Shown piece by piece: positions 1 to 20,070 of a stretch of DNA of 64,000 bases. Origin of the DNA: Streptomyces griseoluteus (GTDB lineage: Bacteria > Actinomycetota > Actinomycetes > Streptomycetales > Streptomycetaceae). Positions within the stretch are counted from its first letter, which is position 1. Each line of letters begins with the position of its first letter. Position numbers and translations under genes: made by a program. The notes under the pieces were generated by a model. The model did no database searches, was not told the origin of the DNA, and was given only the letters and a program-made list of their open reading frames with translations. The stretch lies in assembly GCA_000717735.1 (NCBI GenBank), contig JOBE01000029.1, positions 92,345-156,344 of the forward strand. The letters run 5' to 3'.

Positions 1-146
1 TGTGCGGCGAGCGCCCGGTCCGACGGGGGTGGTGCGGCCCGCGACGGTGCCGGTGTCGTGGTCGCCGTGGACGGTGTGCCGGTGAGGGCCGTCGCCAGGA
101 GGGCGGTCGCCAGGGTCATGGCGGAGCGCCGGAGAGGTCCGGTCAC
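1..146 (-). CDS. Secreted protein, N-terminal fragment (runs off window)
   Basis: Only the first 48 codons are inside the window. Translation from the GTG at 146 gives a short basic N-terminus (VTGPLRRS), a hydrophobic alanine/leucine stretch (MTLATALLATALTG) and then a Thr/Pro/Ala/Ser-rich segment. This is a typical streptomycete Sec or Tat-like signal peptide followed by a linker. A GAGGAG ribosome binding site lies about 6-11 nt upstream of the GTG. The gene is on the same strand as rmlA and rmlB and begins about 110 bp after rmlB ends. In acarbose-type clusters secreted alpha-amylases or acarviosyl transferases (AcbD, AcbE, AcbZ) sit near acbA and acbB, so such a role is possible. Nothing visible here proves it, because the catalytic region is outside the window. 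Confidence 0.6.
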   Translation of the reverse strand, partial: MTGPLRRSAMTLATALLATALTGTPSTATTTPAPSRAAPPPSDRALAA

Positions 147-255
147 GGGTGTGCTGCTCCTCGGGAGCGTGGAGGGGCGGGTACGGAAGGGGGCGGCCGG
201 GCACGGCCGGGGATGCGAGAACGCGGGCTCGGCGCGAGGGGGCGCCGGCCGGGGC

Positions 256-1248
256 TCAGGAGGAGCGGGTCCCGGCCACGGGGCTGCCGTCGGACGTCCG
301 CGGGTGCCGGTCCGCGTACCAGCGGACCGTGTCGGAGAGGGCCGTGGCGAAGTCGGCGCGGGGTGCGTAGCCCAGTTCCCGCCGGATGCGGGTGTCGTCC
401 ACCGCGTACCGCTGGTCGTGGCCCTTGCGGTCCGTCACCCTGGCGATCCGGCCGGGCCCGGCACCGCAGAGCGCGAGGAGGCGGCGGGTCAGGTCCAGGT
501 TGGTGAGGGAGGTGCCGCCGCCGATGTTGTAGACCCGGCCGGGGCGTCCGCCGGTCCTGACGAGTTCGACGGCGGTGACGTGGTCCTCCACGTGGAGCCA
601 GTCCCGGATCTGGGAGCCGTCGCCGAACAGGGGCACGTCCTCGCCCGCCAGGAGAGCGGTGACGAAGCGCGGGATCAGTTTCTCGGGGTGCTGGCGCGGT
701 CCGAAGTTGTTGGAGCAGCGGGTGACGCGGACGTCCAGTCCGTGGGTGGCGTGGTAGGCGAGTGCCATGAGGTCGGCGGCGGCCTTGGAGGCCGAGTAGG
801 GCGAGGTGGGCAGGAGCGGTGCGTCCTCCGCCGCCGCGCCTTCGGCGATCGAGCCGTACACCTCGTCGGTGGAGATCTGCACGTAGGTCCGTACGCCGTG
901 GCGGACGGCCGCGTCCAGGAGGGTCTGCGTCCCGAGGACGTTGGTGCGGACGAAGAGCGAGCCGTCCTCGATCGACCGGTCGACATGGGACTCGGCCGCG
1001 AAGTGCACGATCTCGTCGTGGCCGGGGACGAGGGTGTCGACGAGCTCCGCGTCGGTGACGCTGCCGTGCACGAACCGGAAGCGCCGGTCGTCGCGCAGCG
1101 GGTCCAGATGGGCGGGGCCCGCCGCGTAGGTCAGGTTGTCGAGGACGGTCACGGAGACCTCCGGCGGCCCCGTGGGGCCGAGGAGGCGCAGGACGTGGGC
1201 CGAGCCGATGAATCCGGCGCCGCCGGTGACGAGTATGCGTCGGGTCAT
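256..1248 (-). CDS. rmlB: dTDP-glucose 4,6-dehydratase (RmlB/AcbB/StrE type)
   Basis: 330-residue extended SDR that converts dTDP-glucose to dTDP-4-keto-6-deoxyglucose. It begins with the Rossmann motif TGGAGFIG (about residues 7-14). It then has HFAAESHVDRSI, the STDEVYGS segment, and the catalytic Tyr/Lys pair in PYSASKA, followed by NNFGPRQHPEKLIP, all diagnostic of RmlB. The ATG at 1248 overlaps the stop of rmlA (ATGA), so the two are translationally coupled with rmlA first. No rmlC is present anywhere in the cluster and the only RmlD-like gene lies far away. Together with the neighbouring aminotransferase this favours dTDP-4-amino-4,6-dideoxyglucose over dTDP-rhamnose as the product. A longer upstream reading frame exists but overlaps rmlA and was rejected. 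Confidence 0.93.
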   Translation of the reverse strand: MTRRILVTGGAGFIGSAHVLRLLGPTGPPEVSVTVLDNLTYAAGPAHLDPLRDDRRFRFVHGSVTDAELVDTLVPGHDEIVHFAAESHVDRSIEDGSLFVRTNVLGTQTLLDAAVRHGVRTYVQISTDEVYGSIAEGAAAEDAPLLPTSPYSASKAAADLMALAYHATHGLDVRVTRCSNNFGPRQHPEKLIPRFVTALLAGEDVPLFGDGSQIRDWLHVEDHVTAVELVRTGGRPGRVYNIGGGTSLTNLDLTRRLLALCGAGPGRIARVTDRKGHDQRYAVDDTRIRRELGYAPRADFATALSDTVRWYADRHPRTSDGSPVAGTRSS

Positions 1249-2312: not shown

Positions 2313-2553
2313 ATCGGCTGCCTTCGGTCGGGTGCGGCCTGGCGGTGTCTGGGCACGGTCCCTCCTCGCTCTCGAGGCACTTGTCGGCGGTCGCATCGGC
2401 GACTCAAGCAGAGCCGCGCCATGCACTGCAAGTCATGTCTGAAAGTTTCTGAAATCTCTTGCTAGCCGTCACCGGAGGGTGCTTCACTCGCCCATCAGAA
2501 CGATCAACTGGCTTCCAGTGCACTTCAGTTCGTCCGACCCATGGGGGCAACCG
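2313..2553. promoter_or_regulatory. Divergent control region of the pseudo-oligosaccharide cluster
   Basis: This 241-bp region separates rmlA (minus) from the aminotransferase operon (plus) and is less GC-rich than its surroundings. It contains a direct repeat TCTGAAA at 2438-2444 and 2448-2454, exactly 10 bp (one helical turn) apart. The second copy lies inside the small palindrome TTTCTGAAA. A perfect inverted repeat ACTGG-CTT-CCAGT is at 2507-2519. A CTGCAAG heptamer just before the repeats resembles half of a MalR-type operator. These are seen in the sequence; regulator binding is inferred. No regulator gene is present in the cluster inside the window. Confidence 0.5.
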
Positions 2554-3846
2554 GTGGCAGGTCACCAGCGAGAACTGCTGGCCAGAGAGGCACGGCATCT
2601 GGCGCCCGGCGCATCCGAGGAGGCCGCGCTCGCCCGGCGCGTCTTCACCGAGGGACGAGGCGCCGTCCTCACGGATCTCGACGGCGACCAGTATCTGGAC
2701 TTCGCCGCCGGCACGCTCACCCAGTCACTGGGGCACAGCCACCCGGAGGTCGTCGCGGCGCTGACCCGCCAGGCCGAGCGGCTGTGGAACGTGCACGACA
2801 GCTCCACACCCGAACGGGCCGCCTTCTTCGAGCTGTTGGCGCGCCTGCTTCCCGAACACCTCGACACGTACGCACTGTTCTCCACCGGCGCGGAGGTGGT
2901 GGAGGCCGCCCTCCGGGTCGTCCAGTCCACGGCGGAGCCGGGCCGCAACCGCGTCGGCGCGCTGCGGCACGGTTTCCACGGCAAGACCATGGGCGCCCGC
3001 ATGCTGGTCCACTGGGACGTCGGCCATCAGGCCTTCGCGGGCAACAGCGTCCTCGGCTACGCGCCGTACTGCTACCGCTGCCCACTGGAACTCGAGTACC
3101 CCGCCTGCGACGTCCGGTGCGCCTCCCTCGTCAACCGGCACATCGCCTCCAAGCCGAACGTCTCCGCCCTGGTCTTCGAGCCGGTGCTCGGCGCCGCGGG
3201 CGTCATCGTGCCGCCCCCCGGCTACTGGGAGCGCGTCTCGGAGGCCTGCCGCGACAACGGCGTCCTCCTGGTCGCCGACGAGGTGGCGACGGGCGGCGGC
3301 CGCACCGGCGCCTTCCTGGCCTCCGAACTCGTCGGCGTGGAACCGGACTTGGTGACCATGTCGAAGGGGATGGCGAACGGCTTCCCCTTCGCCGTCCTCG
3401 CGGGACGGCACGACCTCCTGCACTCCCCCGCCGCCGCACCGGCCGGCGCCTACGCGTCCACCTACGCCGGAAACCCGCTGGGCATCGCCGCCGCACGGGC
3501 GACGCTGGAGGTCGTGGAGCGCGACCGGCTCATCGAACGGGTCCGGGTGCTCGGCGACCGGCTGAGCGAGCAACTCATTGCCCTGCACGGCCGCTTCGAG
3601 GTACTCGGAGAGGTCCGGGGCGTCGGCCTGCTGCACGGTCTCGAATTCGTCCGCGACCGCGCCACCCGGGCCCCCGCCCCCGAGACCGCCCGCGCCGTCT
3701 ACACCACCGCCCTCGACCTGGGGCTCCGGACCTCGGTCGGCGGCCACATCATCCGGCTCGCGCCCCCCTTCACCCTCGACGAGGCGCTCCTCGACGAGGG
3801 CGTACGGATCCTCGGGCAGGCCATCGAACGCGTGGTGGCCGCGTGA
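2554..3846 (+). CDS. Class III PLP-dependent aminotransferase (AcbV-like sugar 4-aminotransferase)
   Basis: 430 residues when started at the GTG at 2554, which has a GGGGG-type Shine-Dalgarno about 6 nt upstream. The alternative GTG at 2479 abuts its GGAGG with no spacing. The fold-type I class III hallmarks are present: SLGHSHPEV, FSTGAEVVEAA, ADEVATGGGRTG (Asp242 contacts the PLP pyridine nitrogen) and the Schiff-base lysine in TMSKGMANG (Lys271). A four-cysteine segment (CYRC...CDVRC, residues 173-189) occurs between the domains. Sugar aminotransferases are usually DegT-type. A class III enzyme next to dTDP-glucose dehydratase genes is characteristic of acarbose clusters, where AcbV aminates dTDP-4-keto-6-deoxyglucose at C4. 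The stop overlaps the ABC ATPase start (GTGA). Substrate assignment is by context. Confidence 0.85.
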   Translation: MAGHQRELLAREARHLAPGASEEAALARRVFTEGRGAVLTDLDGDQYLDFAAGTLTQSLGHSHPEVVAALTRQAERLWNVHDSSTPERAAFFELLARLLPEHLDTYALFSTGAEVVEAALRVVQSTAEPGRNRVGALRHGFHGKTMGARMLVHWDVGHQAFAGNSVLGYAPYCYRCPLELEYPACDVRCASLVNRHIASKPNVSALVFEPVLGAAGVIVPPPGYWERVSEACRDNGVLLVADEVATGGGRTGAFLASELVGVEPDLVTMSKGMANGFPFAVLAGRHDLLHSPAAAPAGAYASTYAGNPLGIAAARATLEVVERDRLIERVRVLGDRLSEQLIALHGRFEVLGEVRGVGLLHGLEFVRDRATRAPAPETARAVYTTALDLGLRTSVGGHIIRLAPPFTLDEALLDEGVRILGQAIERVVAA

Positions 3847-4865
3847 TCGTCGCCGAAGGGCTCACCAAGGACTTCCGCATCGCCGAGCGGCGACCCGGTC
3901 TGCTCGGGAGCCTCTCCACGCTCCTCACCCGGGAGTACCGGACCGTGCGCGCCGTCGACGGCATCTCCTTCCGGCTCCGCGCCGGCTCCAAGACCGCGTA
4001 CATCGGCGCCAACGGGGCAGGGAAGTCGACCACGATCAAGATGCTCACCGGCATCATGACCCCCAGCTCCGGCCGGTGCCTGGTCAACGGCGTCGAGCCC
4101 TACCGGCAGCGCCGGGAGAACGCCCGCTCGATCGGCGTGGTCTTCGGGCAGCGCAGCCAGCTGTGGTGGGACCTCTCCGTGCCGGACTCCTTCCAGATCC
4201 TGCGCAGGATCTACGGGATACCGGACGCGGTGTACGAGCGGAACCTGGCGCTCTACCGCGAGCTCCTCGACATCGACGCCCTGGGGACCACACCGGTACG
4301 CCAGTTGAGCCTGGGGCAGCGGATGCGGGCCGAGATCGCGGCGAGCCTGCTGCACGACCCGAAGGTCGTCTTCTGGGACGAGCCGACGATCGGCCTGGAC
4401 ATGGTGCTCAAGGAAGCCGTCCGCACCCTCGTCAACCGCGCCAACGCCGAGCTGGGCACGACCGTGCTGCTCACCAGCCACGACCTCTCCGACATCTCGG
4501 CCATCTGCGACGACGCGCTCGTCGTCGACGGCGGCAGGGTCGTGCACGAGGGCACGCTCCACGATCTGCTGCGCCGCGCCGACCGGCGGTCGGTCGTCTT
4601 CGACCACCGGGGCGGTCCGGGAGCGCAGGACACCGTGCTCCGGATCGAGACGGGGCTTCCGGGCGCCACGGCGGGCCTCACGAACGAGGGCCGGATCCGG
4701 GTCGACTACCCGGCGGACGCCTTCACCTCCCGGCATGTACTCGGCTTCCTCCTGGAGCACTTCGAGCTCGCCGACTGCTACGCCCCCGAACCGGACCTGG
4801 AGACGGTGCTCCGCCAGACCTACCGGGGCGGCGTCCCCGCCGCGCGGGACGGCGGTGCCGTGTGA
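3843..4865 (+). CDS. ABC transporter ATP-binding protein (AcbW-like exporter ATPase)
   Basis: 340-residue ABC ATPase of the ABC-2 exporter group. Walker A GANGAGKST is at 55-63, the Q-loop region FGQRSQLWW at 101-109, signature LSLGQR at 155-160, Walker B VVFWDE at 175-180 and the switch histidine in LLTSHDLSDI. A C-terminal extension of about 110 residues follows the nucleotide-binding domain, as in DrrA-like exporters. The GTG start overlaps the aminotransferase stop by 4 nt, and its own stop overlaps the next gene by 4 nt. With the two permeases downstream it forms a complete exporter, matching the AcbWXY arrangement described for acarbose clusters. The likely cargo is the final pseudo-oligosaccharide (inference). 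Confidence 0.9.
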   Translation: MIVAEGLTKDFRIAERRPGLLGSLSTLLTREYRTVRAVDGISFRLRAGSKTAYIGANGAGKSTTIKMLTGIMTPSSGRCLVNGVEPYRQRRENARSIGVVFGQRSQLWWDLSVPDSFQILRRIYGIPDAVYERNLALYRELLDIDALGTTPVRQLSLGQRMRAEIAASLLHDPKVVFWDEPTIGLDMVLKEAVRTLVNRANAELGTTVLLTSHDLSDISAICDDALVVDGGRVVHEGTLHDLLRRADRRSVVFDHRGGPGAQDTVLRIETGLPGATAGLTNEGRIRVDYPADAFTSRHVLGFLLEHFELADCYAPEPDLETVLRQTYRGGVPAARDGGAV

Positions 4866-5677
4866 GGGCCCCGCTGCGCGCCGGCACCTACGTGCCCTTC
4901 GCCACCAGCGGGCTGCAGTCCCTGCTGCAGTACCGCTCCACCTTCCTGATCACCGGTGTCACCGCCGCGGCGGGCGCCGCCGTCACCGTCTTCCTGTGGC
5001 GTGCGGTCTACGCCGGCTCCCCGGGCCCCGGACCCGGCGGATTCACCCCGGCGAGCATCACCACCTATCTGGTGGTGGCCCAGGTCCTGGCCGTGGTGCA
5101 CGCCAACCGGGTCGACGACGAGGTCGCGGCCGAGGTCTACCGCGGCGACATCGCGGTGATGCTCGTGCGTCCCGTGAGCTATCCGCTGGTCCGCTTCGCC
5201 GCCTGCCTGCCCGTGATCGCCGCCAACGCGCTCCTCGTGGGCGTCCCGCTGCTCGTGCTCTTCTCCGTCCTCGTCCCGCTGACCACCCCCGCCCCGGTGG
5301 ACGCGGCGCTCTTCGTGCTGTCCACCGCGTTCTCGGCGGTCATCGCCTTCTGCGTGAACCTGCTGACCGGCATGGCCGGGTTCGTCACCACGAACACCTG
5401 GGGCGTCCGCATGGTCAAACAGGGGATCGTCGCGTTCTTCGCGGGACAGATGGTCCCCCTGGCCCTGCTGCCCGGCCCCCTGCACACCCTGGCGATGGTC
5501 CTGCCGTTCCGCGCCCTGGCGGACGGGCCCCTCACTCTCCTGCTCGGCCGGTACGAGGGAGTCGGCGGCGCCTCCGCCGTCCTCGGCCACCAGCTCGGCT
5601 GGGCCGTGGGGCTCGTCCTGCTGTGCGCCGTCCTGTGGCGCGGCGCGGTGGGCCGGCTGGAGGTGCTGGGCGGATGA
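4862..5677 (+). CDS. ABC-2 family permease, subunit 1 (AcbX-like)
   Basis: 271-residue integral membrane protein with about six hydrophobic segments: near residues 27-45, 56-75, 107-130, 137-160, 175-200 and 235-260. The N-terminal sequence LLQYRSTFLI and the central V-R-P-V-S motif after a short cytoplasmic loop fit the ABC-2 membrane_6 (formerly DUF990) family. The GTG start overlaps the ATPase stop (GTGA) and its TGA overlaps the ATG of the second permease. It should form a heterodimeric channel with the following protein, driven by the upstream ATPase. The family is recognised from topology and sequence; cargo is inferred from the cluster. Confidence 0.87.
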   Translation: MRAPLRAGTYVPFATSGLQSLLQYRSTFLITGVTAAAGAAVTVFLWRAVYAGSPGPGPGGFTPASITTYLVVAQVLAVVHANRVDDEVAAEVYRGDIAVMLVRPVSYPLVRFAACLPVIAANALLVGVPLLVLFSVLVPLTTPAPVDAALFVLSTAFSAVIAFCVNLLTGMAGFVTTNTWGVRMVKQGIVAFFAGQMVPLALLPGPLHTLAMVLPFRALADGPLTLLLGRYEGVGGASAVLGHQLGWAVGLVLLCAVLWRGAVGRLEVLGG

Positions 5678-6474
5678 ACCGGACCCCCGGCGGCCATCTG
5701 CGCCTGGCGTTCTTCCTCGGAGGGGTGGGCCTGCACCGGCTCACCGCGTACCGTCTCGACTTCCTCCTCGGCTCCGGGGCCTTCCTCGTCCGCGTCGGGC
5801 TCCAGACCCTGGCGGTGGGCGTGGTCTTCACCCACGTCCCCGCCATCGCCGGCTGGTCCTACCCCCAGGTGCTCTTCCTCCTCGGCTGCTCCCTGCTGCC
5901 GCGCGGACTCGACCACCTCTTCACCGACCAGTTGTGGGAGCTGAGCCGCAAGCTGATCCAGCGGGGCGAGTTCTACCGCTACCTGATCCGCCCGGTGAAC
6001 CCGCTCTTCTCGCTCCTGTCGGAACGCTTCTTCCACCCGGACGGATTCGGCGAACTGGCCGTCGGCGCCGTCCTGGTGCTCTGGGCGGGAGCCGAGCTGG
6101 GTCTCGACCCCACCGCCCTGCAATGGGCGCTCGTGCTCCCGCTGATCGTCTGCGGGGCGCTCATCCACGCCGCCGTGAAGCTCTTCTTCGCGTCCCTGTC
6201 GTTCTGGACGGTGACCAGCATGCCCGCGATGCAGACGGTCACCCAGGTGTCCGAGTTCGCCGGCTATCCGCTCGACCTCTACCACCCGTCGCTGCGGATG
6301 CTCCTCACCTGGGTGCTGCCCTTCGCCTTCACCTCGTACGCACCGGCCGTCTACCTGCTGCACGGCTCCACCGGACTGATCCGGTGGCTTCCGGTCGTGA
6401 CGGGTCTTTCCCTGCTCGCCGCGCTGTCGCTCTGGCGGCGTGGCCTTTCCAGATACGAGATGACCGGGAGTTGA
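5674..6474 (+). CDS. ABC-2 family permease, subunit 2 (AcbY-like)
   Basis: 266-residue membrane protein with about six transmembrane stretches, including VGLQTLAVGVVF, AVLVLWAGAEL, LVLPLIVCGALIHAAVKLFFA and the C-terminal VVTGLSLLAALSLW. It carries YRYLIRPVNPLF, matching the R-P-x-N/S loop of ABC2_membrane_6 permeases. Its usual partner, a second permease of the same family, lies immediately upstream with an ATGA overlap. The translated sequence ends cleanly with a short basic tail. Two dissimilar permeases plus one ATPase is the expected composition of this exporter class. Confidence 0.87.
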   Translation: MNRTPGGHLRLAFFLGGVGLHRLTAYRLDFLLGSGAFLVRVGLQTLAVGVVFTHVPAIAGWSYPQVLFLLGCSLLPRGLDHLFTDQLWELSRKLIQRGEFYRYLIRPVNPLFSLLSERFFHPDGFGELAVGAVLVLWAGAELGLDPTALQWALVLPLIVCGALIHAAVKLFFASLSFWTVTSMPAMQTVTQVSEFAGYPLDLYHPSLRMLLTWVLPFAFTSYAPAVYLLHGSTGLIRWLPVVTGLSLLAALSLWRRGLSRYEMTGS

Positions 6475-6482
6475 CGAACTGC

Positions 6483-8057
6483 GTGACCAGCGACACCCAG
6501 CTCCATGAACTGCTGCGCGGCGCGGCCTGGCTGCCGGAGGACGTCCGCCGGGCCGACCGCTACGCGCCGATCGACGAGGCCCCCCTCGGCTCCGGCACCA
6601 CGCTGTTCCTCGTGTCCGTCGTCGGCGGCCCGGCGCACGGCAGGCTCCTCTTCGCCCCGGCCCACGCGGACGCGACGGGCCGCCTGACCGATGCCCAGGG
6701 CTCCGAGGCCTTCGACCTGGCCTGCGTGCGGCTGATGGCGGCCGGGGGCCGGATCCCCACCGCCCGCGGCGGTCACGTCGAGTTCCGCGGCGACGGAACC
6801 GCGGCCCGCGCGGTCTCCCCCCTCCCCTTCGCGCAGGGCTGGTCCTCGAACTCGCTCTCGCTCCTCGACATCGACGGCCGTCCCCACCTCCACAAGGCCT
6901 ACCGCACCCTCGGTGCCGAGGTACGGGAGCCCGAACTGCTGCGTCTGATGCACGGCAGCGGCCACACGCCCCGCTGGTTCGGCGACTACGGCTACGTTCC
7001 CCCGGGCGGGGCCGAGCGGCTGGCGCTCGGGGTGGTCTACACGTACACACCGGGCAGCGGGATCGACACCCCGCTGCGCGCCAACCTGCGTGCGCTCTGG
7101 CCCCGGCTGACAGGCACTCAGAAGCCCGGTCACACCGGCGGCGCGGGCGGTTCCGACGGCCTGGACGGCCTGGTCCGGGAGCACCTCGCTCCGCTGGCCG
7201 GCCCGCTGCGCACCGCCCGCTCGTTCCTCGGCGGGTTCCACGAGGAGCTGCGCACACGCCTGGGCCGGGGAACTCCCCCGCCGGACTACCCCGTCGAGCA
7301 CGCCCTCCGGGCCGCCGAGGAGCGGTACCGCGCGCTCGCCGAGCGGGCCAGGGACGGGGTGCAACTCCCCCCGGCGGCACTGGAGAAGGCCTTCGGCGCG
7401 CTCGCCTCGGAGATCGAGCTGCTGCGGACGGCGTTCGACACCACCGGCACGCACCCCGCGGGGCCCTGCCACGGGGACCTCCATCTGTCGCACCTGCTGT
7501 GGGACCCGCCGCGCCTCATCGACATCTCGACCCCCGGCACGGGTCCCGACGAACCGGGCTGGGCCGAGCAGTCGCCGCTGCAGGACCTGGTGGCGCTGGG
7601 ACGCGCCCTGGAGTACTTCAGCGCCGACGAGGCCGCGTACGAGAGCGCCCGGCTCCTGGGTGTCGACTCGACGGAGACGATGCTCGCCTCGCTCGACGGC
7701 GGCGCCGGCATGCCGCCACGGGAGCGGTCCGTGCTCCTGCTCGTGTTCGAGGCGGCGGACAGGTGGCGCCGGCACGTCGCCGGTCTGCTGCTCACGCGCG
7801 ACGGGGCGGACGGGTCCGACGGGTCCGACGGGTCCGGGTCCGAGGGAGCCGGCGGGTCCCACGAGGCCCTTGCCGGACCCGGACGCGGGCTCCCCGACGA
7901 GCCGTTGCGCCGGTTGCTCTACCTGCGCCGCCTGCTCCACGAACTCGACTACAACTTCGCGCACGCCCGGCCATACCACGCCGCGATCGACCTGCGCCAC
8001 GCCATGGCGCTCGGTCTTCCCTCCCCGCTCCCCCTCACCCTGACCACGAGGACCTGA
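6483..8057 (+). CDS. APH/maltokinase-fold sugar or cyclitol kinase (AcbU-like)
   Basis: 524 residues with the aminoglycoside-phosphotransferase/maltokinase fold. The catalytic HGD triad is at residues 330-332 within C-H-G-D-L-H-L-S-H-L-L. It is followed by the metal-binding aspartate in LIDIS (Asp347), and the N-terminal half resembles the maltokinase cap domain. In acarbose biosynthesis the analogous AcbU phosphorylates the cyclitol at C1 before nucleotide activation. The same role, or a maltose/trehalose kinase role, is possible here. A 9-bp tandem repeat near 7808-7836 encodes a Gly-Ser-Asp-rich loop (about residues 441-455). Start choice: GTG at 6483 with a distant GGGAG. A TTG at 6471 overlapping the previous stop is an alternative. 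Confidence 0.8.
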   Translation: MTSDTQLHELLRGAAWLPEDVRRADRYAPIDEAPLGSGTTLFLVSVVGGPAHGRLLFAPAHADATGRLTDAQGSEAFDLACVRLMAAGGRIPTARGGHVEFRGDGTAARAVSPLPFAQGWSSNSLSLLDIDGRPHLHKAYRTLGAEVREPELLRLMHGSGHTPRWFGDYGYVPPGGAERLALGVVYTYTPGSGIDTPLRANLRALWPRLTGTQKPGHTGGAGGSDGLDGLVREHLAPLAGPLRTARSFLGGFHEELRTRLGRGTPPPDYPVEHALRAAEERYRALAERARDGVQLPPAALEKAFGALASEIELLRTAFDTTGTHPAGPCHGDLHLSHLLWDPPRLIDISTPGTGPDEPGWAEQSPLQDLVALGRALEYFSADEAAYESARLLGVDSTETMLASLDGGAGMPPRERSVLLLVFEAADRWRRHVAGLLLTRDGADGSDGSDGSGSEGAGGSHEALAGPGRGLPDEPLRRLLYLRRLLHELDYNFAHARPYHAAIDLRHAMALGLPSPLPLTLTTRT

Positions 8058-14300: not shown

Positions 14301-14398
14301 CCGACGAGATCGCGCCGGGCAACGAGGAGGACGGTGTGGCGGCGGTCCTGGAGCGACTCTTCGGCACGCCGGTTGCCCCGATGGGAGGTGGCGCGTGA
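11306..14398 (+). CDS. GT5-like glycosyltransferase fused to a Cof-type HAD phosphatase
   Basis: 1030-residue two-enzyme fusion. Residues 1 to about 730 are a GT-B protein paralogous to the 8059 gene. They share [53 protein letters not shown] and KFELDGFLIAQAEAMACG, plus the same extra C-terminal domain. Residues about 762-1030 are a HAD hydrolase of the Cof/YidA group. It has the nucleophile motif DLDGTLL at 766-772, VTGRP (motif II), a lysine in RGVTKGTG (motif III) and GDMPNDLPML near 970 (motif IV). In acarbose clusters, as I recall them, a GT gene (acbI) is adjacent to a separate HAD gene (acbJ); here they are one chain. GGGAG ribosome binding site 7 nt before the ATG. Its stop overlaps malQ (GTGA). 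Confidence 0.85.
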   Translation: MHIVNFAYECGGFDSRLMRGGLSPLVWNLSREYASLGHRVSIVTPAHGHLERLRASYAIEELDFRIDHAVPLVLDPKTWPGRPAEALLPLTTRAHLLRLDGVDVYFLSDAQLDLLPDRLYPPPDSEGRDLSFFKPLVFQVAGLRFLREWLGGEEQAIVHGFEPSYHYLVPLVLRGDPRWRCVSTVAANAPITQKVYRPQVEALLGLFDASPGPAGAGTAAGEGSSLDAWEEAPPPEDSPAAAMVRALSATRLHTEYGPDHVGLFPQLLAHADLVDFVSPGQRDHYSTFADTPMEQYVASLPVSGLLREQAGKLFDGGCGVSGPWLARDPDGVDRDAVLRSLGLDPARPVFYHAARYAVHHKGQLELIRAVEEVLAGGAEVSFLLRCATGAGGVTEVSPANAYFQRVADAYPDRVRLDWRLVDEDALFAEAACADFCVYPSKFELDGFLIAQAEAMACGAVPVGTSQRATAHFGHARPHEDPKATGFAVRGSFRDDDRELAALLADRIRDAERMFREEPEAYARLSAAASRTARGFTWGESARRRLAVFRELLDDVPRRLPARDAIRYGWFDLLDDAEWTEHREAIVRRSLELGDATAYGRCAELDAAAYEALFAAAFARADFPRCAELAEAAGREALMSPVRHRCRVSPAGPDGTLRVEYRHPEVAAVDVVVEGDAPPAAAATDPSGPEPLESAAEAALSDEPVPPAGRTRTAALRRDTDGVFRGSVRADDLRAGLVLRLTLASGRVTWDNVPVPEAPPFRVVATDLDGTLLRGDLTVSSRTRRALDLVAASGARHLVVTGRPAAACRRLLDSLGYTGLAVCGQGAQLYDAGADRLLSAERLDTGLARSVVARVEDLVGPLELGVVTSPPESRFKVTPGFGERVRHGWDVTADRSLLWETPIDKLVLHHRVLGDDELTETARRLCGEEVTVVHSVQGMVEILPRGVTKGTGVARVLEVLGRTGEETVAFGDMPNDLPMLALARHGVAVANAHPALRAVADEIAPGNEEDGVAAVLERLFGTPVAPMGGGA

Positions 14399-16473
14399 GC
14401 GATCCCCTCTCCCGTCTCGCGGGGGCCCATGGCGTGGCGACGGGCTACCGCACCGACCGGGGGCGCCCGGTCGACGTCCCCCGGGACACCCTGGTCGCGG
14501 TGCTCGCCGCCTGCGGCGTCGACGCCTCGACGCCCGCCGCCGCGGAGGCCGCCCTCGCGGCCCACCGCGCCGAGCGGGCCCGCCGGCTCGTTCCACCGTG
14601 CGTGGTCGTACGGGGACCTCGCGGCCCACGGCCGAAGCTGCCGGCCGGAACCAGCGCCGAGGTGCTCTGCGCGGACGGCCGTACGCGAGGACTCGACGAG
14701 CCGCTGCCGGTGGGGTCCCACACGCTGAGAGTGGAGCGGGACGGACGGCACGACGCCGCGGTGCTGCTGGTCGCGCCGGAGCGGTCGGCCCCGGCTCCGT
14801 ACTCGTGGGGACTCCTCGTCCAGCTCTACTTCCTGCTCTCGCGCCGCTCCTGGGGCATGGGCGACCTCGGTGACCTCGCCGAGCTGGTCTCCTGGACGGG
14901 ACGGGACCTCGGGGCGGACTTCGTCCAACTGGGCCCGCTGCACGCGATGGAGCCCGGTCCGCTGCCGGACCCCTCGCCCTACCGGCCGAGCAGCCGGCGT
15001 TTCCCCGACCCGATGCACGTGCGGGTCGAGGCCGTCCCCGAGTTCGCGTACCTGGCGGAGGGGCCGCGCGCCCGCGTCCGGCGGCTTGCGGACCAGGCCG
15101 CGTCCCTCAACTCCGCCGTTCTCGCAGGGGAGTCACTGATCCGCCGCGAGGAGGTGCGCGAGCTGAAGCACCTGGCCCTGCGCGAGGTGTACGAGGTGCC
15201 CCGCTCGCCCGGGCGCGAGGCGGCGTTCGCCGCGTACGTGGCGCGGGAGGGCCGCGACCTCACGGACTTCGCCACCTGGTGCGCGCTCGCGGAGGTCCAC
15301 GGTCCGGCGTGGCGCTCCTGGCCCGCCGCGCTGCGCGACCCCCGGTCGACGGTCGTGGCCGACGCCCGCCGGGTCCTGTCCGGCGCCGTCGACTTCCACC
15401 GGTGGCTCGCCTGGATCACCGACGAGCAGCTCGCCGGCGCCCAGCGCGCCGCGCGGGAGGCCGGGATGCGCGTCGGGCTCGTCCACGACCTGGCGGTGGG
15501 CGTGGCCCCCGAGGGGACCGACGCGTGGGCGCTCCAGCACTGTCTGGCCGAGGGGATGTCGGTGGGGGCCCCGCCGGACGACTTCAATCCGTCCGGTCAG
15601 GACTGGGGTCAGCCGCCGTGGCGTCCGGACGCGCTGGCCGCGGAGGGTTACCGGCCGTTCGCCCGGCTGCTGCGAGCGGGACTGCGGCACTCGGGCGCGC
15701 TGCGCGTCGACCACGTCATGGGGCTCTTCCGCCTCTGGTGGGTGCCGGAGGGGCGTCCCCCGTCCGACGGCACCTACGTCCGGTACGACGGCGCGGCGAT
15801 GCTCGCCGTGCTGGGCGCCGAGGCGGAGGCCGCAGGGGCGTTCGTCATCGGGGAGGACCTGGGCACGGTCGAGCCGGAGGTCCGCGAGGAGCTGGCGGCC
15901 CGGGGCGTGCTGGGGACTGCCGTGCAGCGCTTCGAGTACGAGGGCGGTTCCGAGGGCCGGGTGGGCCCCCTGCCGCCGGAACAGTGGCGCGAGCACTGTC
16001 TCGCCACCCTGACCACGCACGACCTGCCCACCACAGCGGCCTGGCTCAGCGGCGAACACGTCGACCTGCGGGCCTCGCTGGGGCTGCTCACCCGGCCGCC
16101 GGAGGAGGAGAAGGCCGAGGCCGCCGGCGAACGGGACGGCTGGATCGCCGAGTTGGAACGCCTCGGGCTCCTGCCCGATCCCGCCGGCGAGGTCGCGGCA
16201 CTGCACACGTACCTGGGTCTGACGCCGGCCCGGATGATCGGAGTCTGGCTCCCGGACACGACCGGCGACCGGCGGCCGCAGAACCTGCCCGGCACGGCGG
16301 GGATCCACCCCAACTGGTGCCTGCCGATCGCCGACGAGCAGGGCCGTCCCGTGTCCCTGGAGGAGCTGTCCGAGGCTCCGCTCCTCCGCCACCTGGCCGG
16401 GGTGTACGCACGCCGGCCGCAAGCACACCGAGTGACTGACGAGGAGAGGCATGTCAAGCCGGGTTCTAGTTGA
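14395..16473 (+). CDS. malQ: 4-alpha-glucanotransferase (amylomaltase, GH77; AcbQ-like)
   Basis: 692-residue GH77 enzyme that disproportionates malto-oligosaccharides. Catalytic signatures are the nucleophile region RVDHVMGLFRLWW (Asp439), the acid/base in GEDLGTVEPEV (Glu487) and TTHDLPTTAAWL (Asp543). The N-terminal extension before SWGMGDLGDL is typical of actinobacterial MalQ. Presence inside the operon, overlapping the upstream fusion gene and the cyclase start downstream, mirrors acbQ in acarbose clusters. There it shapes the maltosyl part or recycles oligosaccharides. A primary-metabolism MalQ would normally be elsewhere in the genome. The last 23 nt overlap the start of the cyclase gene in another frame. 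Confidence 0.9.
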   Translation: MSDPLSRLAGAHGVATGYRTDRGRPVDVPRDTLVAVLAACGVDASTPAAAEAALAAHRAERARRLVPPCVVVRGPRGPRPKLPAGTSAEVLCADGRTRGLDEPLPVGSHTLRVERDGRHDAAVLLVAPERSAPAPYSWGLLVQLYFLLSRRSWGMGDLGDLAELVSWTGRDLGADFVQLGPLHAMEPGPLPDPSPYRPSSRRFPDPMHVRVEAVPEFAYLAEGPRARVRRLADQAASLNSAVLAGESLIRREEVRELKHLALREVYEVPRSPGREAAFAAYVAREGRDLTDFATWCALAEVHGPAWRSWPAALRDPRSTVVADARRVLSGAVDFHRWLAWITDEQLAGAQRAAREAGMRVGLVHDLAVGVAPEGTDAWALQHCLAEGMSVGAPPDDFNPSGQDWGQPPWRPDALAAEGYRPFARLLRAGLRHSGALRVDHVMGLFRLWWVPEGRPPSDGTYVRYDGAAMLAVLGAEAEAAGAFVIGEDLGTVEPEVREELAARGVLGTAVQRFEYEGGSEGRVGPLPPEQWREHCLATLTTHDLPTTAAWLSGEHVDLRASLGLLTRPPEEEKAEAAGERDGWIAELERLGLLPDPAGEVAALHTYLGLTPARMIGVWLPDTTGDRRPQNLPGTAGIHPNWCLPIADEQGRPVSLEELSEAPLLRHLAGVYARRPQAHRVTDEERHVKPGSS

Positions 16474-17653
16474 CGAGGAACGCCTGTCGGGGGTGTGGGA
16501 GGACGCCGACGGGTTCAGCCTGCTCGCGCCGGACGGCACCGGGTACCGGTCGGACCTCGTCCCGCAGGTGCTCTCCCCCGGGAATCCCGCACTCGCCCGC
16601 GCCGTGGGCGGACGCCGGGTCGTCGCCTTCACCGGGCCGACCGTCGACCGCCTGTACGGGCAGGCGCTGCGCGACTACCTGGAGGCGAACCTGGCCCCGG
16701 GGACGTGGACGCTGCACACGATTCCCACCGGGGAGAAGAACAAGACGCTGGCCATGGCGGAGCGGGTCTGCGCGCTGGCCAAGGCGCACGGACTCGACCG
16801 GCACGGGGTGATGCTGGCCCTCGGCGGCGGCATCGTCTCGGACGTCGTGGGCTTCGCCGCCTCGATGTACTCCCGGGGGATCCGCTACGTCCGGATCAAC
16901 ACCACCCTCGTCGGCCAGGTGGACGTCGGCGTCGGCGTCAAGACGGGGGTCAACGCCCTCCACACGAAGAACATGTTCGGCGCCTACCACCCGGCGCACG
17001 CCTCGCTGAGCGATCCCGCGTTCCTCTCCACGCTGCCGCTCCGCGAGATCCGCTGCGGTCTCGCGGAGATCGTGAAGATGGCCGTGATCCTGGACGACGA
17101 GCTGTTCCGCACGCTGGAGCGGTACCCGGACGCCTTCCGGCGGACCGGAGTCCCGACACCGCCCGAGGTCGAGAGGTACATCCTGCGGACCTCGATGCGG
17201 CTGATGATGGAGGAGCTGTGCCCGAACCTGCGGGAGCACCAGCTCGCCCGCCTGGTGGACTTCGGCCACACCTTCAGCCCCGTGATCGAGACGGCCGGCG
17301 ACCACCGCCTCGAACACGGCGAGGCCGTCGCCGTCGACATGGCGCTCTCGTCCTGCCTGGCACTGCGGCTCGGTCTGGTCGACGAGCGGGAGTGCGACCG
17401 GATCATCGGTCTCCTGGCCCGCATCGGGCTGCCCGTCTTCGACGCGGAGACGTGCACACCGGAACTGATGACCCGGGCGCTCGAGGAGTCCTGGGAACGC
17501 CGCGGCCGCCGGCTGCACCTGGTGGTCCCCATCGCCGCGGGCAAGGCCACGTTCGTCGACGACCTCGCCGACGTGCCCCGCGACGTGCTCGGCCTCGCCC
17601 TGGACGAACTCGCCCGACGAGCAGGGGCTTTCGCCCACGAGGCCGCGCTGTGA
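16451..17653 (+). CDS. Sugar phosphate cyclase, 2-epi-5-epi-valiolone synthase type (AcbC/ValA-like)
   Basis: 400-residue member of the dehydroquinate-synthase fold. NAD-binding and metal motifs include PTGEKNKT (92-99), LGGGIVSDVVGFAAS (124-138), TTLVGQVDVGVGVKTGVN (151-168), GLAEIVKMAV (203-212), DFGHTFSP and LEHGEAVAVDMAL. The GVKTGVN and EIVKMA sequences are those of 2-epi-5-epi-valiolone synthases; true AroB has K-Y-G at the second site. The N-terminal 50 residues before the fold also fit EEVS length (about 400) against about 360 for AroB. It would cyclise sedoheptulose 7-phosphate to a C7 cyclitol. ATG start with GAGGAGAGG just upstream. Other cyclases of the family (EVS, DDGS) are less likely but not excluded. 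Confidence 0.88.
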   Translation: MSSRVLVDEERLSGVWEDADGFSLLAPDGTGYRSDLVPQVLSPGNPALARAVGGRRVVAFTGPTVDRLYGQALRDYLEANLAPGTWTLHTIPTGEKNKTLAMAERVCALAKAHGLDRHGVMLALGGGIVSDVVGFAASMYSRGIRYVRINTTLVGQVDVGVGVKTGVNALHTKNMFGAYHPAHASLSDPAFLSTLPLREIRCGLAEIVKMAVILDDELFRTLERYPDAFRRTGVPTPPEVERYILRTSMRLMMEELCPNLREHQLARLVDFGHTFSPVIETAGDHRLEHGEAVAVDMALSSCLALRLGLVDERECDRIIGLLARIGLPVFDAETCTPELMTRALEESWERRGRRLHLVVPIAAGKATFVDDLADVPRDVLGLALDELARRAGAFAHEAAL

Positions 17654-18054
17654 CCCCTGGCGCCGGGACCACGCGGCCCCTCGTGAACCTGCGGCACCTG
17701 CTGTCCCCGAAACCTCACGACCACGGCGGGGCGGGGACGATACTCGCCCACCGGATCTTCGCGCGGGGCGAAGGGGCCGGCGCCGACTTCATCGACCTTG
17801 CCGTCCTGCCGCCGGGGACATCCATAGGACGGCACCGGCACGGTCACGACCGCGAGACGTACGTCGTGCTCAGCGGGAGCGGCGTGATGTACCGGGACGG
17901 GGAGGCCTTCCGGGTGGAGGCCGGGGACGTCATCCCCAACGAGCCGTTCGGCGAGCACGGTCTGCGCAATGACACGGACACGGAACTGGCGCTGCTCGTC
18001 TTCGAGGTGGCGGCGTACGAGAGGGAGGACATCGATGGCGATCCCGCCCGGTGA
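17650..18054 (+). CDS. Small single-domain cupin, possible cyclitol isomerase/epimerase
   Basis: 134-residue monodomain cupin. Motif 1 is complete: H62-x-H64-x4-E69-x6-G in RHRHGHDRETYVVLSG. Motif 2 is complete too: G92-DVIPNE-P99-F-G101-E-H103-x3-N107. The four metal ligands are therefore intact and a divalent metal enzyme or binding protein is expected. The GTG start overlaps the cyclase stop by 4 nt, tying it to cyclitol formation. Acarbose and validamycin clusters use a VOC-family 2-epimerase (AcbO/ValD) after the cyclase, and no such gene is visible here. The cupin may replace it; this is inference only. Confidence 0.8.
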   Translation: MTPGAGTTRPLVNLRHLLSPKPHDHGGAGTILAHRIFARGEGAGADFIDLAVLPPGTSIGRHRHGHDRETYVVLSGSGVMYRDGEAFRVEAGDVIPNEPFGEHGLRNDTDTELALLVFEVAAYEREDIDGDPAR

Positions 18055-19117
18055 CCCGACGGTGGCGGAGACCGGCGAGGCCGTGACCGTGATGGATGTC
18101 GGGGGGACGACACTGCGCGTCGGCACGTTCGACACCCAGGGTGGCGGACGCCTCTCCGACGTGCGCAGGACACGGGTGGACGGCATGGTCAGCCACCCGG
18201 ATGCTCCCGTGCCGGTGCTCCAGCGGCAGGTGGTCGACCAGATCGTGCGCGAGGCCGAACGGCGGGCCGGGGCGCGCCCCGGCACCGCACCGACCGCCCC
18301 GCCCGCCCTGGCCGTGGCCTTCGCCGGCCCGGTCACCCGGGACGGGACCGTCCTGGGGGCTCCCACGGTGTGGGGCGCGGGCGGCGAACCCCTCCCGCTC
18401 CGGGAGATCCTGAGCGCCCGGCTGTCCGTACCGGTGCTCGTCGTCAACGACCTCACGGCGGCCGCCTGGCGGTACGGGACGGAAAGCCCGGTCCCGTTCT
18501 GTCTCTTGACGATCAGCTCCGGCATCGGGAACAAGGTCTTCCGCGACGGCGACGTGCTCCTCGACGTCGAGGGGTACGGCGGGGAGCTCGGCCACTGGAC
18601 CTGTGACCGCTCCCCCGACGCCCCGCTGTGCGACTGCGGGGGGCGCGGGCACCTGGGGGCGATCGCCTCGGGGCGGGGTGTCCTCGCCGCGGTGCGCCGG
18701 GCGGCGGCCTCCGACCCGGCGGGATACGCCCGGTCGGCACCGGCCCTCGCGGGGGCCGCCGATCCTCGCTTCCTCGGCAATCCGGAGATCGCGCGGGCCG
18801 TACGGAACGGGGACCCGTTCACGACGGCCGTGCTGCGCTCCACCCTCGTTCACCTGGCGGCCGCGGTGGGCGGGGTGTTCGCGTCGATCGGGATCCGCCG
18901 GTACGTCCTGATGGGAGGCTTCGCCCTCGCGATCGGCGAGCGCTACCGGGAACTGCTGGTGGAGGAGCTCGTACGGCAGGGGTGCTTCGGACTGACGGCC
19001 GCTCAGGTCGACGCCATGGTCGTGCTGGGCGAGGACGACGACGACCACGGCCTGATCGGGGTGGGCCGGCTGATGGGCCGCCGTCTCGCGGCCCACCGCG
19101 AGAAGGTGACCCTCTGA
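18035..19117 (+). CDS. ROK-family sugar/cyclitol kinase (AcbM-like)
   Basis: 360-residue ROK kinase. The phosphate-1 motif DVGGTTLRVGTF is at about 23-34, followed by VVNDLTAAAW, SSGIGNKVF, the ROK glutamate/histidine segment GGELGHW and a cysteine cluster PLCDCGGRGHLGA resembling the ROK zinc loop. Glucokinases of Streptomyces belong to this family. In acarbose clusters the ROK member AcbM phosphorylates 2-epi-5-epi-valiolone at O-7. Its ATG at 18035 overlaps the cupin gene by 20 nt and has GGGAGG 7 nt upstream. Protein divergence (for example EVEGYGGELGHW-type spacing and CDC in place of C-x-C-G-x-x-G-C) suggests a specialised substrate. Confidence 0.85.
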   Translation: MAIPPGDPTVAETGEAVTVMDVGGTTLRVGTFDTQGGGRLSDVRRTRVDGMVSHPDAPVPVLQRQVVDQIVREAERRAGARPGTAPTAPPALAVAFAGPVTRDGTVLGAPTVWGAGGEPLPLREILSARLSVPVLVVNDLTAAAWRYGTESPVPFCLLTISSGIGNKVFRDGDVLLDVEGYGGELGHWTCDRSPDAPLCDCGGRGHLGAIASGRGVLAAVRRAAASDPAGYARSAPALAGAADPRFLGNPEIARAVRNGDPFTTAVLRSTLVHLAAAVGGVFASIGIRRYVLMGGFALAIGERYRELLVEELVRQGCFGLTAAQVDAMVVLGEDDDDHGLIGVGRLMGRRLAAHREKVTL

Positions 19118-20070
19118 TGCCGACGCGTACGGAGAACACGCCGACCGGCACGGCTCGCCGGGCCCTCGTGGTCGGCAGCGGCTTCGTCGGCTCCGAGATC
19201 GCCCGCCGACTCGTCGCCGAGGGCCATGAGGTGACGCTCGGCTCACGAGGACGGCCCACGGTCGCACCCGAGGACTACGGGGCGAGGTGGCAGTCGCTGG
19301 ACGCCACGGACGCGAAGGCCTGCGACCGGGCGGTGGCGACGGTCGCGCCCCGCACGGTCGTCCTGGTCCACGGGCCGTCCGACGTCACGTGGTGCGAGGC
19401 GCATCCCGAGGAGGCGGCCGCGGCACACCGGGCGGCGACGGCCCACTTCGCCGCGGTACCGGGTCTGGACCGCATCGTGATGATCTCGACGGACAACGTG
19501 TTCGACGGCAGGGGGGCCGAGAACGTCGAGTCCACCCCGACCGCACCCGCCAACGCGTACGGGGTGGCGAAACGCGCCGCCGAGGAGGTGCTGTTGTCCG
19601 GGGCGGCCTCCCCGGCGACGGCCCTGCGCGTCAGTCTCGTCTACGGCCACGAGCCCGCGGGCGGCGAGAAGTGGCTGAACTTCTTCGCGTCGTGTGCCCA
19701 CCGCCTGGCCCGGGGCGAGCCGGTGGAGGCACCGGCCGACCAGTGGACCACTCCGGTCCTCGTGGACGACGTCGCCACGGTGGTCGCCCGCCTCCTCGCC
19801 CACGAGGGTGACCTCCCGCCCGTACTGCACCTGGGCGGCCCCGAACGCGTCTCCCGAGCGGCCTGGGCCCAAGAGATCGCCCGCGCCCTGAACGCCCCGA
19901 CGACCCTGGTGAACCCGGTCCCGAGAGCCGCGGGCCGCTACGCCTCCAGACCGCAGAACACCTGCCTTTCCAGCACGCTGCTCCCCACCGTGCCAGGCAT
20001 GAACGCCGTCCCCCTCCAGGGCGTGGCGGCGGCGGCCGAGACCCTGGCGCCACGGTTCCTCCAACACTGA
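19117..20070 (+). CDS. RmlD-like NAD(P)-dependent reductase (extended SDR)
   Basis: 317-residue extended SDR. Rossmann motif GSGFVGSEIA is at about 19-28, STDNVFDG occupies the catalytic strand, and the Tyr-x3-Lys pair is in AYGVAKRAAEE. Its best family resemblance is dTDP-4-dehydrorhamnose reductase (RmlD). With no RmlC in the cluster a rhamnose role is doubtful. A reduction or oxidation step on the cyclitol, as done by AcbL or AcbN, is a reasonable alternative. The ATG overlaps the ROK kinase stop by one base (TGATG). It is the last gene of the operon, because a strong hairpin follows at 20093. Confidence 0.8.
   Translation: MPTRTENTPTGTARRALVVGSGFVGSEIARRLVAEGHEVTLGSRGRPTVAPEDYGARWQSLDATDAKACDRAVATVAPRTVVLVHGPSDVTWCEAHPEEAAAAHRAATAHFAAVPGLDRIVMISTDNVFDGRGAENVESTPTAPANAYGVAKRAAEEVLLSGAASPATALRVSLVYGHEPAGGEKWLNFFASCAHRLARGEPVEAPADQWTTPVLVDDVATVVARLLAHEGDLPPVLHLGGPERVSRAAWAQEIARALNAPTTLVNPVPRAAGRYASRPQNTCLSSTLLPTVPGMNAVPLQGVAAAAETLAPRFLQH

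What the first reader, a model, noticed from the sequence alone, without database searches (positions are those of the whole stretch)
1..20070. Divergent acarbose-type pseudo-oligosaccharide gene cluster
Seen: EEVS-type cyclase, ROK kinase, APH-like kinase, GlgC-like nucleotidyltransferase, two GT5-like transferases, a HAD domain, MalQ, class III aminotransferase, rmlA, rmlB and an ABC-2 exporter in one compact block. Known: AcbC, M, U, R, S, I, J, Q, V, A, B and WXY have these families in acarbose pathways. Inferred: the locus makes an acarviosin-like cyclitol-amine joined to a malto-oligosaccharide. Differences (GT-HAD fusion, cupin, no AcbK-type kinase, no VOC epimerase) suggest a new structure.
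Basis: partly seen in the sequence, partly recalled or inferred. Interest (0 to 1): 0.92.

Follow-up and report, generated by a model that had tools for sequence, protein, structure and literature searches.

The report
Acarbose-type gene cluster with extra module
A soil bacterium carries the known kind of gene set that makes acarbose-like blockers of starch digestion, plus a neighbouring, apparently co-controlled set of extra enzymes not found in sampled genomes of two known producer species, so its product may be a modified and still unknown relative of the drug.

Summary
It is a collinear member of the Streptomyces sct/gac type: V-W-X-Y-U-S-R-I-Q-C-cupin-ROK-RmlD match the S. coelicoflavus (acarviostatin-type) locus in order at 51-79% identity. 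The 'new' traits are standard there: S. glaucescens has a 1023-aa GT-HAD protein, and published sct has SctI 1027 aa, SctJ and SctO. 'No AcbK' is a window-edge effect: an AcbK-type kinase lies 11 kb upstream, followed by GMC oxidoreductase, aldo/keto reductase and radical SAM genes. These look like part of the cluster: in 199 Streptomyces genomes, 8 of 9 with the GMC also carry the S transferase, 1-17 kb away; GMC divergence tracks S divergence; a 21-base motif precedes both operons and occurs nowhere else in 8.1 Mb at up to 3 mismatches. Sampled S. glaucescens and S. coelicoflavus genomes lack this GMC. Two adjacent amylase genes carry a K-N motif that I equate with published acarbose resistance. 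Best reading: an exported acarviosyl pseudo-oligosaccharide, probably redox-tailored. Product unknown.

The parts
1..119 (-). 5' end (signal-peptide-like start) of pullulanase-type amylase amy2 (1027 aa), running off the window to position -2964
   Evidence: GH13 + PUD + pullulanase N2; region II reads GFRVDTAKN
256..1248 (-). rmlB-like dTDP-glucose 4,6-dehydratase (SctB)
   Evidence: 70% to L086
1245..2312 (-). rmlA-like glucose-1-phosphate thymidylyltransferase (SctA)
   Evidence: 67% to L086
2427..2462 (+). operator-like motif TGCAAGT-N5-CTGAAAGTT-N10-CTTGC before the V-D operon; the only other copy in the genome (up to 3 mismatches) precedes the K2 operon
2479..3846 (+). class III aminotransferase (AcbV/SctV)
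   Evidence: 79% to L020, 75% to Actinoplanes L040
3843..4865 (+). exporter ATPase (AcbW/SctW)
4862..5677 (+). ABC-2 permease (AcbX/SctX)
5674..6474 (+). ABC-2 permease (AcbY/SctY)
6483..8057 (+). APH-like kinase (AcbU/SctU, predicted valienol-7-phosphate 1-kinase)
   Evidence: 51% to L020, 38% to L040; HGDLHLSHL motif
8059..10182 (+). predicted pseudoglycosyltransferase (AcbS/SctS/GacS clade)
   Evidence: tree; 66% to L020, 59% to L040
10175..11293 (+). GlgC-like cyclitol nucleotidyltransferase (AcbR/SctR)
11306..14398 (+). GT5-like transferase (AcbI) fused to Cof-type HAD phosphatase (AcbJ equivalent, inferred); corresponds to SctI/GacI
   Evidence: (P0179); HAD is a separate gene between I and Q in Actinoplanes L040
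14395..16473 (+). GH77 4-alpha-glucanotransferase (AcbQ/SctQ)
16451..17653 (+). sedoheptulose-7-phosphate cyclase, predicted EEVS (SctC)
17650..18054 (+). cupin, SctJ equivalent (proposed 2-epimerase)
   Evidence: fused to a cyclase in P0108
18035..19117 (+). ROK kinase, C7-cyclitol 7-kinase (AcbM/SctM)
19117..20070 (+). RmlD-like SDR, SctO equivalent

Best explanation
This is a Streptomyces sct/gac-type gene cluster for an acarviosyl pseudo-oligosaccharide that inhibits amylases and glucosidases, extended by a co-regulated four-gene module upstream of the window (AcbK-type kinase K2, GMC oxidoreductase, aldo/keto reductase, radical SAM enzyme). Predicted route (all functions here inferred from homologues): the cyclase makes 2-epi-5-epi-valiolone. 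The cupin (epimerase), the ROK kinase and the RmlD-like SDR turn it into valienol 7-phosphate. The U kinase adds the 1-phosphate, the HAD domain of I removes the 7-phosphate, and R makes NDP-valienol. RmlA, RmlB and V make dTDP-4-amino-4,6-dideoxyglucose. I joins that sugar to a malto-oligosaccharide. S forms the C-N bond to the cyclitol. Q trims or extends the glucan, WXY exports, and K2 phosphorylates the product in the cell as self-protection. The GMC enzyme oxidises a hydroxyl to a ketone and the aldo/keto reductase reduces it again, most simply giving an epimer. The radical SAM enzyme adds an optional further change. Secreted amylases with the K-N substitution keep working. The confidence given is for the cluster type and for the module belonging to it; the redox tailoring of the product alone stands at about 0.4 (see the section on the most novel reading).
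For: Core: same gene order as S. coelicoflavus L020, whose upstream ORFs have the published sct sizes (SctG 301, F 335, H 424, C1 342, E2 565). S and I fall in separate clades, each 100/100. Cyclase closest to 4p53. Searched catalytic motifs present. Kinase: K2's best solved relative is the AcbK entry 6wb7, 372 bits. Module: in the 6 nearest of the 44 loci, K2-GMC-AKR lies on the far side of the amylases on the same contig as V in 6 of 6, with the radical SAM in 5 of 6. GMC and AKR lie inside 18 of the 44 loci and GMC is in 24 of 38 searched genomes behind the loci. In 199 Streptomyces genomes 8 of 9 with GMC have S, against 5 of 190 without GMC. GMC and S distances correlate over 26 rows, r=0.85, 0 of 5000 permutations as high. 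Shared operator-like motif: 2 sites in 8.1 Mb at up to 3 mismatches, reversed control 0. Both cluster amylases read KN, the most similar motif elsewhere in the genome (C9) reads KH.
Against: No product is known and no function was tested. 14 of 38 genomes lack the GMC at E<=1e-100 though their clusters are otherwise alike, so the core does not need the module, and its substrate is unknown. One GMC genome of nine (G157, a fragment in a broken assembly) has no S match. The radical SAM is missing in one close relative (L078). Ten loci carry GMC-AKR with the ordinary R-I-gap kinase, so GMC-AKR is not tied to K2. The motif copies near K2 in relatives are weaker (best strand 3-5 mismatches in five), and in L079 the nearest weak match is over 2 kb away. 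GMC scores highest against a mycofactocin-system family, though below its cut-off.
Confidence: 0.78

Rival explanations
1. Same core and same membership of the module, but the product is a plain acarviostatin/acarbose-type compound: the GMC-AKR-radical SAM genes serve salvage or turnover of the product rather than its structure.
For: Core identical in order to sct. Module optional: GMC not found in 14 of 38 genomes, and at least 4 gains or losses on supported branches of the S tree. K2, in the same operon, belongs to a product-phosphorylating kinase family.
Against: A salvage GMC would not obviously need an AKR partner. GMC distances co-vary with S distances. The module is kept in L044, L046 and L047, where no I or Q was found in the fetched stretch, so no malto-chain enzyme to partner.
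Confidence: 0.35
2. The K2-GMC-AKR-radical SAM operon makes a separate compound (for example a mycofactocin-like redox peptide) and merely neighbours the cluster.
For: GMC's best NCBIfam match is MftG, 236 bits, below its cut-off of 387. The radical SAM core folds like SuiB and other SPASM/twitch enzymes.
Against: Several placements around the same cluster: beyond the amylases upstream, downstream, GMC-AKR behind D, and behind Q or the HAD gene. AcbK-type kinase inside the operon. Shared motif. 8 of 9 GMC genomes have S.
Confidence: 0.08
3. Primary metabolism: a shikimate-type cyclase beside glycogen enzymes.
For: Families overlap with AroB, GlgC, GlgA and MalQ in name.
Against: The genome has a separate AroB-like protein, 33% identical. 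S and I far below glgA cut-offs. Cyclase best match is 4p53.
Confidence: 0.02

Closest known systems
sct cluster, Streptomyces coelicoflavus (acarviostatins)
   Same: Gene order V-W-X-Y-U-S-R-I-Q-C-J-M-O, SctI GT-HAD size, SctJ/SctO in place of AcbO/L/N, amylases upstream
   Different: SctK lies between R and I; importer FGH, E1, E2 and LacI/MalR-type regulators stand between amylases and rmlB; no GMC match at E<=1e-100 in the sampled genome, strain NBRC 15399. The window strain has K2 elsewhere and none of these genes between its amylases and rmlB
gac cluster, Streptomyces glaucescens (acarbose)
   Same: GT-HAD protein P0179 1023 aa, 63% identical over 99%; GacS-like P0224; same order on fragments L008 and L051
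   Different: Kinase in the R-I gap; no GMC at E<=1e-100 in the sampled, fragmented genome of strain NRRL B-2706; the GLA.O chromosome itself was not searched
acb cluster, Actinoplanes sp. SE50/110 (acarbose), seen here through A. sandaracinus L040
   Same: V, W, X, Y, U, S, R, I, Q, M and K2-type AcbK homologues
   Different: Actinoplanes-type cyclase only 40% identical; separate HAD gene; per the literature AcbL/N/O instead of cupin and RmlD-like SDR; no cupin or RmlD-like match in L040
Two-step epimerisation by dehydrogenase plus aldo/keto reductase (DepA/DepB on deoxynivalenol)
   Same: A keto intermediate is reduced to the epimer by an AKR (start of abstract of PMC9427786 in the search listing)
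   Different: DepA is PQQ-dependent (recalled), not a GMC flavoenzyme; different substrate; analogy only

Membership tests
sct/gac-type acarviosyl pseudo-oligosaccharide cluster | C7-cyclitol synthase of the SctC kind rather than AroB | tested here: met
   72% to S. coelicoflavus P0078; 4p53 252.6 bits against 161 for the best chain that I take as a true DHQ synthase; activity untested
sct/gac-type acarviosyl pseudo-oligosaccharide cluster | Paired S (pseudoglycosyltransferase) and I (glycosyltransferase) of the AcbS/AcbI families | tested here: met
   tree, each clade 100/100; the one Actinoplanes SE50 row is on the I side
sct/gac-type acarviosyl pseudo-oligosaccharide cluster | SctJ cupin, SctM ROK kinase and SctO RmlD-like SDR behind the cyclase | tested here: met
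   75%, 62%, 61% to L020 in the same order; sizes close to the sct table
sct/gac-type acarviosyl pseudo-oligosaccharide cluster | AcbA/B/V, U, R, Q, WXY homologues | tested here: met
sct/gac-type acarviosyl pseudo-oligosaccharide cluster | SctK kinase between R and I | tested here: not met
   R-I gap 12 bp; an AcbK-type kinase stands 11 kb left of the window instead
sct/gac-type acarviosyl pseudo-oligosaccharide cluster | Dedicated importer FGH beside the cluster (carbophore model; absent in some published clusters too) | tested here: not met
   none between amylases and rmlB; best SctH match in the genome 50%, on C9 within 10 kb of amylase genes
sct/gac-type acarviosyl pseudo-oligosaccharide cluster | Production of an acarviosyl compound | not testable with these tools
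   needs culture and LC-MS
acb-type (Actinoplanes) cluster | AcbL, AcbN and AcbO type enzymes in the cluster | tested here: inconclusive
   Pfam finds no VOC or zinc-dehydrogenase domain among the 15 block genes, but no AcbL/N/O sequence was at hand for direct comparison
AcbK acarbose 7-kinase family (K2) | Sequence relation to AcbK above other PfkB kinases | tested here: met
   6wb7 372 bits, Mak1 213, next 48; activity untested
Validamycin-type pathway (GT20 pseudoglycosyltransferase) | GT20 (VldE/ValL-like) transferase | tested here: not met
   no such Pfam domain among the block's 15 genes
Mycofactocin system (GMC and radical SAM) | MftG/MftC equivalogs over their cut-offs | tested here: not met
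   236 against 387 and 76 against 265 bits

The most novel reading that the evidence does not exclude
A GMC-AKR pair, often with a radical SAM enzyme, is an old, co-regulated tailoring module of acarbose-type pathways that was lost in the lineages of the known acarbose and acarviostatin producers. Many clusters now labelled 'acarbose-like' in Streptomyces and Kitasatospora would then make an unrecognised class of epimerised or otherwise redox-modified pseudo-oligosaccharides, with the change on the cyclitol-aminosugar core, since the module is kept in clusters where no I and Q were found.
Probability: 0.4. Interest if true: 0.7.

Novelty: new variant of a known kind. Interest (0 to 1): 0.5.

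Why it matters
Acarbose is a drug, and its relatives are told apart by small changes in ring number and substituents. 24 of 38 searched genomes behind the loci carry an extra oxidoreductase that the sampled S. glaucescens and S. coelicoflavus genomes lack. If it shapes the product, surveys that label such clusters 'acarbose' or 'acarviostatin' are wrong about the product, and new inhibitor structures should be obtainable from ordinary strains. The window clade also has an acarbose-type kinase and K-N amylases but no importer beside the cluster. That makes it a natural test of whether these compounds are recycled sugar carriers ('carbophores') or one-way weapons, a question Tsunoda et al. 2022 leave open (discussion read).

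Tried and rejected
Rejected: the GT-HAD fusion, the cupin and the lack of a VOC epimerase as new traits. Rejected: the absence of AcbK (it is upstream). Rejected: primary glycogen or shikimate genes.

Led nowhere: no paper among those searched was seen to mention GMC, radical SAM or aldo/keto reductase genes in acarbose-type clusters (0 occurrences of these three terms in the 4 listed papers; 0 in two main texts). This is weak: the trestatin-cluster paper PMC9957957 is not held, Guo 2012 and Rockser 2009 were not read, and figures and supplements were not seen. Papers on NeoQ/KanQ/BtrQ-type enzymes in aminoglycosides: none found. The radical SAM model's matches mostly cover residues 8-388; they include carbohydrate enzymes (BlsE, DesII, BtrN) and peptide enzymes (SuiB), so they do not tell the reaction. 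Its helical C-terminal part was not tested. The same-contig test by equal contig lengths gave only 18 of the 60 best radical SAM homologues (118 were listed), probably a lower bound because only the best 120 rows each were available. In some searches only 7 and 5 candidates per genome were scored as a rule, so matches could be missed.

Own errors: and 75 contig pieces were joined with one base counted twice (L007's last base is window base 1). The amylase query was therefore out of frame: positions stand, identities do not; one search repeated it in frame and one search shows amy2 intact. The contig lengths were typed by hand from the tables.
Full report
What is there. Motifs searched for the cyclase, HAD, APH-like, ROK, cupin, GlgC-like and aminotransferase proteins are present. 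Of three genes tested downstream of 20070, none is kept next to the cluster in the six nearest relatives, except a 32% short-chain dehydrogenase match in L021, so 20070 is the likely right edge. The left edge is outside the window.

What kind. The cyclase matches PDB 4p53 at 252.6 bits, 5tpr at 195.2 and the next chains at 161 and below. 4p53 is listed only as 'Cyclase'; that it is the validamycin enzyme ValA, and that 5tpr is a gadusol-type synthase, is recalled. The cyclase is 72% identical to the S. coelicoflavus homologue P0078 and 71% to that of S. dimorphogenes P0071 (PMC12498427 names S. dimorphogenes as trestatin source, passages read). It is 40% identical to the Actinoplanes sandaracinus cyclase and 33% to the genome's own AroB-like protein. 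S and I score 59 and 35 bits against the glycogen synthase model, cut-off 328. In a 25-row tree the 11 labelled S rows and the 10 labelled I rows form one clade each (100/100); window S lies with S. glaucescens P0224 and window I with P0179, and the Actinoplanes SE50 protein P0214 lies on the I side.

Why not divergent. One scan gave 44 loci. The S. coelicoflavus locus L020 has the order V-W-X-Y-U-S-R-K-I-Q-C-cupin-ROK-RmlD. Identities to the window genes are V 79, W 76, X 76, Y 74, U 51, S 66, R 71, I 59, Q 66, C 72, cupin 75, ROK 62 and RmlD 61% (K). Upstream of it lie ORFs with sizes equal to published SctC1, H, F, G and E2 (table of PMC8234114, passage read). That table already has SctI at 1027 aa, SctJ (138 aa, 'no homologue', proposed 2-epimerase) and SctO (324 aa, 'no homologue'). 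The review says these two stand in for the missing AcbO, AcbL and AcbN (passage). S. glaucescens itself has a 1023-aa GT-HAD protein (P0179). A naming trap: SctJ is the cupin, whereas AcbJ is the phosphatase of Actinoplanes, which here is, I infer, the C-terminal HAD domain of I. In A. sandaracinus L040 the HAD is a separate gene between I and Q.

The kinase. In 22 of 44 loci a kinase (K1) fills the gap between R and I (a PfkB domain was checked for the one of L008). The window clade has none there. But a kinase (K2) stands at contig 80734-81672, 11 kb left of the window: 45% to the S. glaucescens K1 and best matched to PDB 6wb7, 'Acarbose 7(IV)-phosphotransferase', at 372 bits, then 'Acarbose Kinase Mak1' at 213; the next match has 48. 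Of 15 genomes examined, K2 at 73-95% is in 8, including the six nearest relatives; the other seven have only a 43-47% match.

The module. K2 starts an operon: K2, GMC oxidoreductase (81669-83156), aldo/keto reductase (83153-84133), radical SAM enzyme (84278-86323). In five of the six nearest relatives all four genes, and in the sixth (L078) all but the radical SAM, lie beyond the amylases on the same contig as V. In S. alfalfae K2-GMC-AKR lies downstream of the cluster. In Kitasatospora and several Streptomyces it follows Q or the separate HAD gene. In ten loci with K1, GMC-AKR follows the RmlD gene, four of them with a 42-45% radical SAM in between. GMC and AKR are inside 18 of the 44 loci. 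Genome-wide, GMC at E<=1e-100 is in 24 of 38 searched genomes; L028 and L032 were asked but not held. The 14 without it include S. glaucescens NRRL B-2706 and S. coelicoflavus NBRC 15399; some are fragmented assemblies.

Control for specificity. In one sample of 199 Streptomyces genomes (GMC; S; both E<=1e-100) GMC was found in 9 and S in 13, with both in 8. Fisher's one-sided p is 2.1e-10; related genomes are not independent, so the number is only a guide. In those 8 the two genes lie 1-17 kb apart on one contig, one of them (G158) a distant version at 47-48%. The ninth (G157) is a GMC fragment in an assembly of 460 contigs. On the S tree (38 rows; four second loci of a genome, and three loci with weak or short S matches, L008, L039 and L043, left out) the GMC label needs 6 changes, at least 4 on supported branches. 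Over 26 rows GMC and S distances correlate at r=0.85, with 0 of 5000 permutations as high. GMC-AKR thus looks old in the family and repeatedly lost. In L044, L046 and L047 the module is kept although no I or Q was found in the fetched stretch, which points to the cyclitol-aminosugar core as substrate.

Shared control element. TGCAAGT-N5-CTGAAAGTT-N10-CTTGC occurs without mismatch 16 bp before the V open reading frame as called (window 2427-2462) and 75 bp before K2 (contig 80623-80658). With up to 3 of 21 mismatches these are the only two sites in 8.1 Mb, with none for the reversed control and none in shuffled window or L007 sequence. The pattern was built from these two sites, so their perfect match is by construction; the test is the lack of others and the conservation. 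Copies with 0-2 mismatches stand before V in the six relatives and in S. coelicoflavus. Weaker ones (best strand 3-5 mismatches) stand within about 430 bp of K2 in five of the six; in L079 the nearest, with 6, is over 2 kb away. Simulated sequence of 3 x 104 kb gave 2 matches with 6 mismatches and none with fewer.

Amylases. Two pullulanase-type amylase genes lie between the module and rmlB. Both read GFRVDT(A/V)KN in region II; the most similar motif elsewhere in the genome, on C9, reads GFRIDTVKH (that gene's other domains were not scanned). All 20 amylases of this motif type beside clusters in 11 other genomes have N, while nine amylase motifs of another type there keep H. PMC13240717 (results part 1 and passages read) reports a histidine-to-asparagine change in pullulanase-type amylases as acarbose resistance, enriched in genomes with such clusters, with a conserved lysine next to it. 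That this is the same site is my inference. amy2 is intact (1027 aa). amy1 lacks parts of its N-terminal catalytic region and shifts frame in this assembly, while the five relatives with two matches have both near full length.

Mechanism. Reported for Actinoplanes by others: AcbC, M, O, L, N (passages) and AcbU, J, R, I, S (sections). Inferred here by homology: the same roles for C, M, U, the HAD domain, R, I and S, with cupin and RmlD-like SDR in place of O, L and N. The cupin would epimerise next to the ketone and the SDR would reduce it, as RmlC and RmlD do in rhamnose synthesis (recalled). Which of them removes water is open. In the window strain the GMC motifs (GTYWHPVGT, ANTQ), the AKR motifs (FDHADIY, TKVGIR, LLHRPDP) and the radical SAM CNSLCGYC are intact (relatives), and four further cysteines are invariant in a 48-row alignment, so the module enzymes should work. 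An oxidase-reductase pair most simply epimerises a hydroxyl; a keto intermediate reduced by an AKR is known from deoxynivalenol epimerisation (abstract start). The radical SAM model, made for the 94% identical S. parvus protein P0243 (pLDDT 86.7), resembles SPASM/twitch enzymes and does not fix the reaction.

Novelty. The core is an ordinary member of a known type. The GMC-AKR-(radical SAM) module with shared motif is, as far as the searched open-access papers go, not described; key subscription papers could not be read.

Noticed in passing
L007:14050-16950 (contig C29 86395-89295), left of the window: The first of two tandem amylase genes lacks blocks of its N-terminal catalytic part and changes frame, while five close relatives have both copies near full length; decay or assembly collapse.
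   Followed up: partly
window 20244-21712: A small ORF followed by an ORF without Pfam match (20639-21712) whose C-terminus reminds me of ATP-grasp peptide ligases (recalled); possibly a separate peptide cluster.
   Followed up: no
P0108 (Streptomyces sp. NPDC047880, 547 aa): Natural fusion of the cyclase with a cupin domain, supporting that the cupin acts on the cyclase product.
   Followed up: no
P0285 (Streptomyces sp. NPDC058439, 662 aa): A protein combining a radical SAM and a GMC N-terminal domain, either a fusion or a broken gene model; it links the two module enzymes.
   Followed up: no
L044, L046, L047: Clusters with S, U, R, V, cyclase, cupin, ROK, RmlD, separate HAD, K2, GMC, AKR and radical SAM but without I and Q in the fetched stretch: a shorter product is likely.
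   Followed up: partly
L013, L014, L016 (S. alfalfae XY25): Three seemingly identical cluster copies on three contigs of one assembly, probably assembly redundancy.
   Followed up: no
G158:C441 (L118, L129): A distant GMC (47%) 1.3 kb from a distant S-like transferase (48%): perhaps another pseudo-oligosaccharide type.
   Followed up: no
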